Assembly (NCBI RefSeq): GCF_037975245.1
Contig: NC_092572.1
Coordinates: 26,024,489 to 26,088,488, forward strand
Length of the DNA: 64,000 nucleotides
Direction of reading: 5' to 3'
From: Apostichopus japonicus
Lineage: Eukaryota; Echinodermata; Holothuroidea; Aspidochirotida; Stichopodidae
Under the pieces are notes generated by a model, which worked only from the letters and a program-made list of their open reading frames with translations, ran no database searches and was not told where the DNA came from. The position numbers and the translations under genes are program-made. Numbering within the stretch: position 1 is the first letter of the stretch; the number at the start of each line of letters is the position of its first letter. This document shows, in pieces, positions 46,946 through 57,202 of this stretch.

Positions 46946-49900
46946 GTAAGTGTTGATATTGTATTTTCGTCAGTTTCAGTTTGAACACTCCAAATGAACA
47001 TTATCCATTGCTTCATGCTTTAAGCACATCTCAGATTCAGTTACTCATCGCAATTTCTGTTGACAAGACTAGTATGCGAAAAGAGTTCTTTAAATTGGTG
47101 CCTTACATAATTGGATATATTTTTAGTTGCAATTCTTAGTTAAAAAATCCGTGGTATTGAATAATCTATTTCTGTATCTTGCTGCTTCCTTCCAACAAAC
47201 CAAGGACATTTATATCTGAAATAGTTACATGCTGAAAGCTGTCACAAATAGATCATTATATGCGTTACTATATATGTGTCTAGGCAGTGCATTTACATGG
47301 CAGACTGCTGCTATATAATTTTCTTTTGACGGTTCGGAATACTGTCATTAAATAAAATGACATCCACTTGTTATGCTTTACTCTCTTCAGCTGGCTAAAG
47401 ATATGTAAATTTGACAACAAACGTCTATTCCAATTGTAACGTTGGCCAGTGTCTCCCGAAGTTCCGGCCGCTTGAACTAATAAAAATATTTAACACATAT
47501 CAATACAAAATCGGAAAAGAGGTTTAATACCGGTTAATTCTAATGTATTAATGCAGTCAGTCGATCGCTGATTCACTGACATATGAATTAACCACATATG
47601 ACGGCATTGACAAGCGTACAGAGATTACATTAGTAAACAGTTAATATAAATGGTAAAGTAATTGTCTTCGCACTTATGCTGTTACACAGTTACATACTTA
47701 CCCAATTACGCAATTACACAATAACGCAATTAAGCGTAAAAAACTCCTGGAGGCATACACGAGATTTGTTGGGACTCACTCAACTACGGGCTAAAAGACT
47801 AAAACCTTTCTATCGTCTCAGCTATAGATCACTAAATAAATCATCTCTTTTCGAAACGCAACTGAGCCAGTGTATAAATGATATCATCACGTCAATCATC
47901 ACCGAAATCGGGATTTGGAATATGTTAATGAGCTAAATCGATGATATGTCGATTTAAATAGGTATATGTCAATTTGAGACTCTAGAAACTGGTATAAGTC
48001 CACGGAAATTGACTTCTACCGATTTAATTCGACATATCATCGATTTAAACTGGTAGATGTCGATTTAAATGGACATATCATCGATTTATTTTACATATCA
48101 TCGATTTAAATCGATGATAAGTAAAATAAATCAATAAAATAAAATAATGTTATGTAGAATGAAACTGGTATATGTCGCTTTAAACTGACATATACCAGTT
48201 TCATGGTATATGTCGATTATGTTGGTATATGTCGATTTAAATCGATGATATGTAGAATGAAACTGGTATATGTCGATTTAAATCGGTAGAAGTCAATTTC
48301 AGCTGCTGGAAACTGGTATAAGTCGAAGGAAACTGGTATATGTCGATTTAAATCGGTATAAGTCGATCTCCCATGATTTGAGACTGATGGCCGGCCATAG
48401 TGCTTTACTAGTGTTTTGCAGAACAAATATTACACGTTTCTTGCACCTGCCTCTCGTCATACGTCGCAAAGGCGAAACGCAATGAGCAACCATCAACAAG
48501 CCTTGATCTGCATCCCGTAACACAGGAGGACCAGGTGCCCCCTACATATCCTTTTGGCGACACTAAGATATACTTTCTTTTGATACCACAGGATCCTTGC
48601 TTATACTCCGGGGCCAGTGGACCCCATGCTGTTACTATATATATATATATATATATATATATATATATATATATATATACTATTTTTTTCTTTTTTCCCA
48701 TCTATGAGGGAATTGACATCCTTTCACGATAAGTTTGTTTCAAGATTTAAAGAATCAACGGTCATTAAAGAAAAAAAATCTTGCTTTCGTCAGATTTAAT
48801 GGTCACTTGTCCGTGGTTAAAGGCGTTCGTATTCTCCTTATTTGGCTCCCAGTTCGGCTTGTAGGTGGTGTCAGGGACCAGGAGGGCAGAACTGAGATTT
48901 ATCTGAATGGACAGTGGGGTACTATCTGTGATGATTATTGGGATAACGATGATGCGACCGTGGCCTGTCGGCAGCTTGGGTATCCGTCAGCGGAGGCAGC
49001 AACCAGTTCTGCGAGTTTTGGGCAAGGAACTGGTCAAATCTGGTTGGATGATGTACAATGTGACGGATCCGAACAGAATATTTTGTCTTGTGCAAACCGT
49101 GGCGTTGGTGTACACAACTGTGGTCATGGTGAAGATGCCGGAGTGAAATGTGAAAGTCGATGTAAGATGATTCTACATTTAGCAGATATTTGAAATATAA
49201 GTAAAGTTAGAGTTTACGTTTGGTATTGTAGATAACTTAACTAGTAAAAGTCCTAGGGTCCTAACTTGTTAAGGGCAATATTATGCCTTGTCAGTATTTA
49301 TGATATGTTACTTTATTCTTTCTTCCTGAAATATGTCACCGGTGTTGTGACTGAGTGGATAAAAACGGTATCATTTGATACTTAGCAATCGGGAGGTTCG
49401 GGTTTCGATCCCGGGCAGAGTATAATAAGTGTTGGGTTCAAAATGTTGAACTGGAAGCCACCCGACGTGAAAGTTGTAATCCATTAGCGTCGTAAAAAAA
49501 TATCTACCTGATTATATAAGTGAAGCAAGAGGAAGGCTAAACATGATTTAAAATAATTTTCCGTATACCAATTATTCTCATCATTTGAAAACTCGTAAAA
49601 AAAAACGGAAAAGAAAAGAGTAAGTATAAGGTAAAACAGTTGTCCTGCTTATGCGTGTTTTCTCCGAATTACAGTGAGATTGGTGAATGGCGGATGGAAC
49701 TACAGAGGACGTGTGGAGTTGTTCATGAACGGAGAATGGGGTACCGTTGATGAGGATCCGTGGGACAATACTGATGCTGGTGTTGTTTGTCGTGAACTCG
49801 GCTTTAGTTATGGCGGAATTGGCTACAAGGGTGCTCACTTTGGACAGGGTACAGGGCCAATATGGATCGATGAAGTGAACTGTCAAGGCCAAGAGACTAG

Positions 49901-55900: not shown

Positions 55901-57202
55901 ACGGCCTGAACCTTATAACTTTCTGCGTAGAATATTGATACCAGTTCTGGATCTCAACCCCGAATGATATTACACCATATACTTATATACCTCGAAACAC
56001 AGGTGTATAAACAATACCCTACCAAGTTGGACTTATTTTGTTCCTATTGTATGGCTAACTAACTGACTCATTATAACTTGTGACGTTTGGAAGTTTTGGA
56101 ATTTTAGTTCATTGGCAACGTGCCAATAGGGACTATACCTGTAAAATTGACCTATTAACCTTTGGCTAGATATATGCTAATTTAGCCTATGAACTAGCGA
56201 GACTACGGAAAACAAAATAGACCCTTTAGATTGCGGCTATTTCCAATTATTAAATGTTTACTGTGACAGTCAAAGTCACCTCTAGCTTAAAAAAATCCAT
56301 TTGAAGAACAATTCCCAAACACGGCTACGAAAATGTTTGCACCGATTGGTATTTACCATAGCTTAAAAGTCGTGTCTGTGAGGCTGTCATATTGTAACTA
56401 TGTGATGTCATAGTGGCTCTATAGTATCTTTATGTAGTTCCCAAGAATGAATTTAACAGTGTTGTAACTAAACTAGATAACATCATTATAGGCCGTACGT
56501 AGAGAATTCATATTGTAGATTCAGTAGTGTCAAACTCCACCGACAAAAATTTAACATTGTAGTATTTAAAGTAAGTTATTTTAAATTTACATGTTATTCC
56601 ATGATGTCATGAATGTTTCGACTCGAACAAGTCTATCAGATCTGAATGTGAAGGAACATTAAACCTGGGATACATCCCAAATAGTCTAAAATTTTACTAG
56701 CTGTTTGGAGAATTGTTTATTACATGTATCTCTTTGACATAGATCGAAACTAATTATTTGTCATGTGTCTCCTTTAAACCCATGACTCATTTTATACCCT
56801 GGCGAGGCATAAACATTTAAACTTCATTAAATCTTTTGCAACAAAAGTGTTCTACATCTAGGATTGATAACCTATTTTTTTCCACCCACGTCAGTTCGAC
56901 TTGTTGGTGGTGCAAACAACAATGAAGGCAGAGTTGAAATATTTATAAATGGAACTTGGGGAACCATCTGTGATGATTATTGGGATAACGATGATGCGAA
57001 CGTGGCCTGTCGGCAGCTTGGCTATTCGTCAGCGGAGGCAGCAACTAGTTCTGCAAGTTATGGGCAAGGAACTGGTCAAATCTGGTTGGATGATGTACAA
57101 TGTGACGGATCCGAACAGAATATTTTGTCTTGTGCAAACCGTGGCGTTGGTGTACACAACTGTGGTCATAGTGAAGATGCTGGTGTAAGATGTGAATTTT
57201 AA
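46855..57202 (+). CDS. Secreted protein with seven SRCR domains, complete gene
   Basis: Eight exons join in frame: 46855-46945, 48853-49161, 49675-49980, 50645-50950, 51882-52190, 53365-53670, 54578-54883, 56895-57202. Every intron is GT-AG and in phase 1, the usual arrangement for SRCR exons. The product is 746 residues: a signal peptide of about 25 residues, then domains of 102-103 residues starting about 31, 134, 236, 338, 441, 543 and 645. No transmembrane segment follows the last domain (ends RCEF), so it is probably soluble. SRCR proteins bind polyanions, microbes or other proteins, and the family is greatly expanded in echinoderms and amphioxus. Domains 1, 4 and 7 have six cysteines; domains 2, 3, 5 and 6 have only four. 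An AATAAA at 57333 follows. The exact orthologue is not known. Confidence 0.9.
47930..48370. repeat. Palindromic repeat array in SRCR intron 1
   Basis: Multiple copies of TATGTCGATTTAAATCG and GAAACTGGTATAAGTCGA occur in both orientations. At 48096-48119 there is a perfect 24-base palindrome around ATCGATTTAAATCGAT. Confidence 0.85.
48637..48680. repeat. (AT)n microsatellite in SRCR intron 1
   Basis: Uninterrupted AT dinucleotides, about 170 bases upstream of SRCR domain exon 1. Confidence 0.95.
48853..49161 (+). CDS. SRCR domain 1 exon (six-cysteine type)
   Basis: 309 bases: [73 protein letters not shown]. Cysteines correspond to C2, C3, C5, C6, C7 and C8 (group A pattern). The acceptor is TTATTTGGCTCCCAG and the donor GTAAGA. 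Confidence 0.95.
49337..49500 (+). mobile_element. tRNA-derived SINE, family B, copy 2 (SRCR intron 2)
   Basis: Box A is TTGTGACTGAGTGGATAAAA and box B GGTTCGGGTTTCGATCCCG. The tail is GGAAGCCACCCGACGTGAAA with a final CATTAGCGTCGTAAAAAAA. It shares both head and tail with 27898-28175 but is shorter in the middle. Confidence 0.8.
49675..49980 (+). CDS. SRCR domain 2 exon (four-cysteine type)
   Basis: 306 bases: [71 protein letters not shown]. At the C2 site TICDD is replaced by TVDED, and at C7 HNCGH by EDSHT. The donor is GTGCGT. Confidence 0.95.
50645..50950 (+). CDS. SRCR domain 3 exon (four-cysteine type)
   Basis: 306 bases: [72 protein letters not shown]2 and C7 are both absent as in domain 2. 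It reads RRLRF where the family has RQLGF. The acceptor is CCTCGAAATAACAG and the donor GTATGT. Confidence 0.94.
51882..52190 (+). CDS. SRCR domain 4 exon (six-cysteine type)
   Basis: 309 bases: [73 protein letters not shown]. Group A cysteine pattern. The acceptor is GTTATCCGTAG and the donor GTAAGG. Confidence 0.95.
53029..53210. repeat. Long interrupted (AT)n tract in SRCR intron 5
   Basis: About 180 bases of AT dinucleotides with a few interruptions (ACTTAC, GTAT, AAAT). It yields spurious IYIYIY open frames on both strands. Confidence 0.95.
53365..53670 (+). CDS. SRCR domain 5 exon (four-cysteine type)
   Basis: 306 bases: [72 protein letters not shown]2 and C7 are absent. The acceptor is CGAATATTACAG and the donor GTAAGT. 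The long (AT)n tract lies just upstream in the intron. Confidence 0.95.
54578..54883 (+). CDS. SRCR domain 6 exon (four-cysteine type)
   Basis: 306 bases: [72 protein letters not shown]2 and C7 are absent. The acceptor is ATATTTACAG and the donor GTACGT. Confidence 0.95.
56895..57202 (+). CDS. SRCR domain 7 exon (six-cysteine type) with stop
   Basis: 308 bases: [75 protein letters not shown] then TAA at 57200-57202. It is almost identical to domain 1; 108 bases (57062-57169) match 49020-49127 exactly. The acceptor is TTTTTTCCACCCACGTCAG. Confidence 0.94.

What the first reader, a model, noticed from the sequence alone, without database searches (positions are those of the whole stretch)
48853..57202. 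SRCR domains alternate 6-4-4-6-4-4-6 cysteines, with paired loss of C2 and C7
Seen: domains 1, 4 and 7 keep C2, C3, C5, C6, C7 and C8. Domains 2, 3, 5 and 6 keep only C3, C5, C6 and C8. In all four the C2 site (TICDD) has become acidic (TVDED, TVDDD or TIDED) and the C7 site (HNCGH) has become EDSH- or EDYH-type. Known: in SRCR folds C2 pairs with C7, C3 with C8 and C5 with C6. Inference: one whole disulphide was lost as a unit in an ancestral domain, which then spread by duplication of a three-domain module (6-4-4). The extra acidic residues could form a new metal- or cation-binding face in place of the disulphide. I do not recall this subtype being named.
Basis: partly seen in the sequence, partly recalled or inferred. 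Interest (0 to 1): 0.75.

Follow-up and report, generated by a model that had tools for sequence, protein, structure and literature searches.

The report
SRCR domains with aspartates replacing disulphide
An animal gene for a probably secreted immune-type protein of seven SRCR domains has four domains in which a textbook disulphide bond was lost as a pair and both cysteines became aspartate, right beside the known metal-binding site of the fold.

Summary
Seven one-exon SRCR domains run 6-4-4-6-4-4-6 in cysteines. I add a signal-peptide exon at 46855-46945, giving a 746-residue all-SRCR protein.

Correction: C7, like C2, became Asp in all four domains, not Ser/His. The known SRCR cation ligands lie next to C2 and C7. 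The clade keeps these ligands and adds acids: at eight ligand positions other than C2/C7, 7.86 are acidic in the cluster's seven four-cysteine domains, against 6.29 in 79 domains sampled elsewhere.

Loss is paired: of 131 domains examined, 10 lack both, none only one. The ten form one clade (100/95) in a tree built without those columns. They lie at two loci of one chromosome; at the second, an SRCR-lectin gene, the cation ligands have decayed.

The 6-4-4 module is not supported but not excluded.

Best reading: an SRCR subtype, unnamed in the library searched, with an acid-rich, perhaps metal-tied pole. Metal binding is untested. New variant of a known kind.

The parts
46855..57338 (+). whole gene: signal-peptide exon, seven SRCR exons, stop, first AATAAA at 57333
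   Evidence: gene model from splice sites and homology, no transcript seen
46855..46945 (+). signal-peptide exon ([30 protein letters not shown]), phase-1 donor gtaagt
   Evidence: scan for Met + hydrophobic stretch + phase-1 donor; homologous exons before two sister genes at C12:26094976 and 26167613. Judged by eye, no signal-peptide predictor was run
48853..49161 (+). D1, six cysteines
49675..49980 (+). D2, four cysteines, Asp at C2 and C7
50645..50950 (+). D3, four cysteines, Asp at C2 and C7
51882..52190 (+). D4, six cysteines
53365..53670 (+). D5, four cysteines, Asp at C2 and C7
54578..54883 (+). D6, four cysteines, Asp at C2 and C7
56895..57202 (+). D7, six cysteines, terminal exon with TAA
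49749..49751 (+). D2 C2 site, codon GAT (Asp)
49938..49940 (+). D2 C7 site, codon GAT (Asp)
50719..50721 (+). D3 C2 site, codon GAT (Asp)
50908..50910 (+). D3 C7 site, codon GAT (Asp)
53439..53441 (+). D5 C2 site, codon GAT (Asp)
53628..53630 (+). D5 C7 site, codon GAT (Asp)
54652..54654 (+). D6 C2 site, codon GAT (Asp)
54841..54843 (+). D6 C7 site, codon GAT (Asp)

Best explanation
The gene encodes a secreted, multivalent, all-SRCR recognition protein that most likely binds anionic ligands (microbial surfaces, sulphated or phosphated molecules) through divalent cations, as DMBT1/SALSA does. Four of its seven domains belong to a subtype that arose once. Its ancestor lost the C2-C7 disulphide as a pair; in the lineage of this cluster both positions became Asp and the residue before C7 became Glu. 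C2 directly precedes two known cation ligands and C7 directly follows a third, so the covalent staple between the two ligand-bearing stretches was exchanged for a run of acids. I propose that bound Ca2+/Mg2+ now ties these stretches together, so that the domain is firm and able to bind only with metal. Shown: gene anatomy from sequence, paired loss, one origin on the tree, purifying selection, acids at the ligand positions. Inferred: secretion, metal tie, ligand type, immune role.
For: Ligand positions of SALSA sites 2 and 3 (D1019, D1020, D1058, D1059, N1081, E1086; mutants D1019A and D1020A abolish binding to three ligands; PMC7043408, passages) are 5.86 of 6 acidic in the seven cluster four-cysteine domains, 4.67 in 42 six-cysteine domains. 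At the eight positions of sites 1-3 the figures are 7.86 and 5.83, and 6.29 in 79 domains elsewhere (C2 and C7 themselves left out). Glu at 1081 and at 1019 is seen in 0 of 79 sampled domains, but in 7 of 7 and 6 of 7 of the clade. Seven of nine columns that gained acids against the cluster's six-cysteine domains lie within six residues of C2 or C7, none of nine that lost acids does, while mean net charge is -12.0 against -10.7. Both Cys-to-Asp changes need two base changes from TGT to GAT. dN/dS 0.12-0.34. One clade 100/95. The bacteria-binding motif region GRVExxxxxxW is kept.
Against: No binding data and no usable structure: the two models are of middling confidence and gave no coordinates. 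C2 ends a strand in both models, so its side chain may point away from the cations. One cluster member has Gly at C2. The three second-locus relatives have N/G, D/K and S/E and few acidic ligands (2.33 of 6), so Asp/Asp is not needed for the fold. The seven acid-rich domains are one lineage, hence one event. Part of the gain is only against the cluster: position 1023 is acidic in 63 of 79 domains elsewhere too.
Confidence: 0.42

Rival explanations
1. Tolerated loss: the C2-C7 bond is dispensable in this fold. Once one cysteine went, the unpaired partner was removed by selection, and polar residues without special function filled both places. Binding works through the ordinary cation site.
For: Replacements differ between lineages: D/D, G/D, N/G, D/K, S/E. 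MSPL has a stable SRCR domain with only two disulphides (PMC8046417, passages). Predicted confidence of D5 (67.3) is no lower than that of D7 (65.3).
Against: In the window's lineage Asp sits at both places in 6 of 7 domains, with Glu before C7 in 7 of 7, over synonymous distances up to 1.08. Acid gains cluster at that pole.
Confidence: 0.35
2. Hydrogen-bonded pair: the two Asp (or D/K at the second locus) face each other in the place of the disulphide and hold the loops by a shared proton or salt bridge, without metal.
For: D/K at C12:13767606 could be a salt bridge. The C2 place ends a strand in both models.
Against: Two neighbouring carboxylates should repel at the pH of body fluid unless protonated or bridged by a cation (general chemistry); N/G and S/E form no such pair.
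Confidence: 0.13
3. One reading: a three-domain 6-4-4 module was duplicated to give 6-4-4-6-4-4-6.
For: The order itself; AU does not reject D2+D5 (p 0.139) or D3+D6 (p 0.216); exon dS near 1 would let intron likeness fade.
Against: D2 is 84-89% identical to single four-cysteine exons elsewhere in the cluster, against 73.3-79.2% to its siblings, with matching introns on both sides. D1 is closest to D7, not D4 (86.1 against 70.6%). No two introns of the gene match at E 0.001.
Confidence: 0.1
4. Each four-cysteine domain lost the bond independently.
For: Different residue pairs at the second locus; in the 52-row tree N/G fell outside.
Against: All ten on one side of a branch, 100/95, 996 of 1000 bootstrap trees, without the C2/C7 columns.
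Confidence: 0.05

Closest known systems
DMBT1/SALSA/gp340 SRCR domains (group B)
   Same: SRCR fold in series in a secreted protein; one exon per domain; the residues at cation sites 1-3 (PMC7043408, PMC3100851, passages)
   Different: DMBT1 domains have eight cysteines with C2-C7 intact; here four domains have four cysteines and Asp at C2 and C7
Group A SRCR domains (MARCO, SR-A and most sea cucumber and sea urchin SRCR)
   Same: D1, D4 and D7 have the six group A cysteines
   Different: D2, D3, D5 and D6 lack C2 and C7; each domain is one exon, whereas group A is described as encoded by two or more exons (PMC4491621, PMC3100851, passages)
SRCR of MSPL/TMPRSS13 and hepsin ('group C' of Ojala et al. 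as cited in PMC8046417)
   Same: MSPL too has an SRCR domain with only two disulphides (passages)
   Different: By recall, not by any search, these keep C2-C7 and lack C5-C6. Hepsin lacks the cation ligands (PMC7043408, passages). None of the four domains reaches the cut-off of SRCR_2 (PF15494), which by recall is the protease-type SRCR model
Sponge seven-cysteine 'group C' SRCR (PMC10855680)
   Same: A lineage-specific change of cysteine number within a large invertebrate expansion (passages)
   Different: A gained extra cysteine, not a lost pair

Membership tests
SRCR superfamily (PF00530) | profile match above the curated cut-off (26.1 bits) | tested here: met
   7 of 7 window domains, 88.7-116.6 bits
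SRCR group A | six cysteines C2, C3, C5, C6, C7, C8 | tested here: not met
   met in D1, D4, D7; not met in D2, D3, D5, D6
SRCR group A | domain encoded by two or more exons | tested here: not met
   each of the seven window domains is one exon
SRCR group B | eight cysteines | tested here: not met
   six or four in all seven window domains
SRCR group B | domain encoded by a single exon | tested here: met
Protease-type SRCR (SRCR_2, PF15494) | profile match above its cut-off (27 bits) | tested here: not met
   D2, D3, D6 no match at E 0.01; D5 17 bits. The six-cysteine D1, D4, D7 do reach it (28.4-29.6 bits) but score far higher on PF00530
SALSA-type cation-binding SRCR | ligand residues at sites 2 and 3 | tested here: met
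   5.86 of 6 acidic in the seven cluster four-cysteine domains
SALSA-type cation-binding SRCR | cation binding and cation-dependent ligand binding | not testable with these tools
   needs purified protein
Four-cysteine C2/C7-less SRCR clade (proposed) | one clade when the C2 and C7 columns are left out | tested here: met
   10 of 10 against 92 six-cysteine domains, 100/95. In the smaller 52-row tree nine were together at 94/89 and N/G fell apart; holding ten together was not rejected there, AU p 0.324
Four-cysteine C2/C7-less SRCR clade (proposed) | present in other species | not tested
   no collection of other animal genomes was open; viral contigs gave no match to D5

The most novel reading that the evidence does not exclude
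A disulphide-for-metal exchange: a conserved extracellular disulphide was lost once and its two cysteines became paired aspartates beside the fold's own cation ligands. This would give a recognition domain whose closure and ligand binding are switched by Ca2+/Mg2+ and no longer held by a redox-dependent bond, displayed four times in one secreted protein.
Probability: 0.3. Interest if true: 0.75.

Novelty: new variant of a known kind. Interest (0 to 1): 0.5.

Why it matters
SRCR domains are classed by their cysteines, and the C2-C7 bond is in both main groups. A selected, single-origin class without it, with aspartates in its place beside the known ligand-binding cations, would show that the bond and the metal site can be traded. 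It is a natural experiment on what the bond does: one derived lineage kept and strengthened the metal site, the other (the SRCR-lectin gene on the same chromosome) let it decay. It also suggests that counts of invertebrate SRCR by 'group A or B' may hide further classes.

Tried and rejected
Rejected: independent origin of each four-cysteine domain. Rejected: pseudogene or chance open frames (splice sites, phase, dN/dS). Rejected: overall acidification, since mean net charge is much the same. Weakened, not excluded: the 6-4-4 module.

Led nowhere: viral contigs gave no match to D5; NCBIfam gave none for D5 or D7. No collection open to me held other animal genomes, so spread over species is untested. 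The fold search did not complete, so the models were not compared with solved structures. A genome search with the N/G domain did not complete, nor one for COX1 meant to narrow down the organism. I did not check the cysteines of the solved SRCR chains one by one (searches list them).

Limits of the census: the 79 outside domains were picked by me from lists of best matches, so they are not random and may miss odd, low-scoring domains. Domains were aligned with a profile built from the seven window domains. Three short remnants were dropped. One fetched region (L049) was left out because it holds no SRCR match. L001-L008 were scanned (all their full-length domains have six cysteines) but are not in the 131, as some repeat sampled places. 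In the 102-row tree only 4 of the 33 six-cysteine cluster domains outside the window gene were used.
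Full report
THE OBSERVATION. I translated the region and set exon borders by splice sites. There are seven SRCR exons, each with an AG acceptor, a GT donor (the last ends in TAA) and phase-1 junctions. Each matches Pfam PF00530 with 88.7 to 116.6 bits. Cysteine counts are 6-4-4-6-4-4-6, and the four-cysteine domains keep exactly C3, C5, C6 and C8. A profile of the seven finds no further SRCR domain in the window. The window is G000:C12:26024489-26088488 of a 671.6 Mb assembly in 35 contigs, in which a first look lists 712 SRCR candidates, 150 of them scored.

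A CORRECTION. In the alignments HxED of the four-cysteine domains matches HxED of the six-cysteine ones, so EDSH stands for NCGH and the C7 place holds Asp. The codons are GAT at both places in D2, D3, D5 and D6, and TGT at both in D1, D4 and D7; the change needs two base substitutions each. The residue before C7 is Glu instead of Asn, and one residue is missing between C6 and C7.

THE GENE. About 1.9 kb upstream lies an exon, 46855-46945, that encodes a signal peptide by its looks and joins D1 in frame. The joined frame has 746 codons and ends at 57202 with no further domain or anchor behind D7. The same signal exon lies before two sister genes and the same 3' end behind them. By my gene model gene 2 has 26 domains, one of them four-cysteine (Gly at C2, Asp at C7), and gene 3 has nine, one of them four-cysteine (Asp/Asp). 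A fourth, broken copy keeps one Asp/Asp domain and remnants. No transcript was seen for any of them.

HOW COMMON. In the cluster, the second locus and two stretches of C6 I scored 52 full-length domains: 42 with six cysteines, ten with neither C2 nor C7. I then fetched 79 domains from other places on C2, C3, C5, C6, C7, C9, C10, C11, C12, C13, C17 and C21: 79 of 79 have all six. So of 131 domains 121 have both, 10 neither, 0 only one. The 79 came from best-match lists and are not a random sample. A genome-wide pattern for the C2 motif with Asp gave 7 places, none for the reversed control; six are domains of this cluster and in the seventh region (C8:27098514) no SRCR domain was found. That pattern misses other replacements, and the Asp/Lys domain too.

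THE SECOND LOCUS. With D2 as query, the best match outside the cluster is C12:13767609 at 56%, and the reverse search returns the seven cluster domains first. With the S/E domain the same eight come first, but with only a small gap to the next match (1.2e-18 against 1.4e-18). That gene, 12.3 Mb away, has two six-cysteine and three four-cysteine SRCR exons (N/G, D/K, S/E) and then a C-type lectin domain over two exons (PF00059, 1.9e-8 and 2e-8). That these exons form one gene is inferred.

ONE ORIGIN. With the C2 and C7 columns left out, a tree of 102 domains puts the ten four-cysteine domains on one side of a branch at 100/95, in 996 of 1000 bootstrap trees. A quick tree of the same rows gave 93. 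An earlier tree of 52 rows grouped nine at 94/89 and placed N/G with a long-branched neighbour; holding all ten together was not rejected, p 0.324. N/G and S/E are long branches and their place is the least sure. The seven cluster domains were one clade in the small tree (93/91) but in only 15 of 1000 bootstrap trees of the large one, so the order of events inside the clade is open.

THE MODULE. A 6-4-4 duplication predicts D2 with D5, D3 with D6 and D1 with D4. Protein identities are D2-D6 79.2, D2-D5 74.3, D3-D6 73.3, D3-D5 74.3; D1-D7 86.1, D1-D4 70.6. D2 is 84-89% identical to the single four-cysteine exons of genes 2 and 3 and the broken copy and shares introns on both sides with them. 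No two introns of this gene match at E 0.001. Against my reading: D2-D5 dS is 1.0, so old introns may have lost their likeness, and the AU tests reject neither pair (0.139 and 0.216). The likelier story is one four-cysteine exon in an ancestral gene, with extra copies made in the window gene.

THE SITE. A paper on SALSA/DMBT1 (PMC7043408, passages) reports three cation sites: site 1 with side chains D1023 and D1026; site 2 D1019, D1020, E1086; site 3 D1020, D1058, D1059, N1081. The single mutants D1019A and D1020A abolish binding to hydroxyapatite, heparin and a bacterial surface protein. The spacing of these numbers fits the six-cysteine window domains without a gap, so C2 is 1018 and C7 is 1082 (my arithmetic; the paper's passages do not give these two numbers). 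C2 is thus the residue before D1019, and C7 the residue after N1081: the lost bond tied together two stretches that carry cation ligands. At the eight ligand positions the seven cluster four-cysteine domains have 7.86 acids, 42 six-cysteine domains 5.83 and 79 sampled ones 6.29; with C2 and C7 counted, where a six-cysteine domain scores nothing by definition, the figures are 9.71, 5.83 and 6.29 of ten, and 4.00 for the three second-locus domains. For the six ligands of sites 2 and 3 they are 5.86 (cluster four-cysteine), 4.67 (42 six-cysteine) and 2.33 (second locus). Against the cluster's own 36 six-cysteine domains nine columns gained acids, seven of them within six residues of C2 or C7; nine lost acids, none of them that close, though two lie just beyond at C2+7 and C2+10. 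Mean net charge hardly moved, -12.0 against -10.7. The seven are one lineage, so this is one event, however often it is seen.

SELECTION. Nei-Gojobori dN/dS is 0.12 to 0.34 in all 21 pairs of the seven exons, with dS from 0.11 to 1.08. The altered domains look kept as working protein.

STRUCTURE. Models of D5 and D7, each from the seven window domains only, are of middling and similar confidence (67.3 and 65.3; pTM 0.61 and 0.57) and share the first strands and the first helix. They say only that losing the bond does not visibly spoil the predicted fold. No coordinates were given and the comparison with solved structures did not complete.

MECHANISM. Shown: anatomy, paired loss, single origin, selection, acids at the ligand positions. 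Inferred: a secreted, multivalent binder of anionic surfaces in which metal takes over from the bond as the tie between the two ligand-bearing stretches. Weakest link: whether the Asp side chains reach the metals. Plain tolerated loss explains the second locus well and remains the chief rival.

WHAT IS KNOWN. Groups A and B have six and eight cysteines (PMC10855680, passages); C2-C7 belongs to both, since group B adds only C1-C4 (PMC11058800, PMC3100851, passages). 'Group C' has been used for a seven-cysteine sponge class and for hepsin/MSPL, where MSPL has two disulphides (PMC8046417, passages). A sea cucumber paper says that most if not all of its SRCR domains are group A (PMC13228809, passages). 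Searches of the held library for a class without C2 and C7 found none by the terms used (listings); most subscription journals are not in it.

VERDICT. Real, with one origin on the tree, unnamed as far as I could search, and more interesting than first stated because the loss sits beside the functional site. It remains a variant of the SRCR fold, and its chemistry is untested.

Noticed in passing
L023:6363 to L024:2681 (C12:13764363-13770681): SRCR-C-type-lectin gene: two six-cysteine SRCR exons, three four-cysteine ones (N/G, D/K, S/E) and a lectin domain over two exons; the cation ligands of the three are largely gone.
   Followed up: partly
L009-L016 (C12:26094976-26159168): Sister gene with the same kind of signal exon and 26 SRCR domains in a row, one of them four-cysteine with Gly at C2.
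   Followed up: partly
L019:8135 to L020:847 (C12:26196535-26199247): Broken fourth copy: one intact Asp/Asp domain, the last 14 residues of a second four-cysteine domain, and decayed SRCR remnants.
   Followed up: partly
window 16014-21780, minus strand: Two open frames match the adaptor-complex medium subunit family PF00928 (one over, one under the cut-off), probably exons of a separate gene; 10 of 21 listed long frames of window 1-46000 were scanned.
   Followed up: no
window 60236-61027: 29-base minisatellite, 27.3 copies, 95% matches.
   Followed up: no
window 48020-48366 and 58447-59628: Short tandem and partly self-complementary AT-rich repeats flank the gene on both sides.
   Followed up: no
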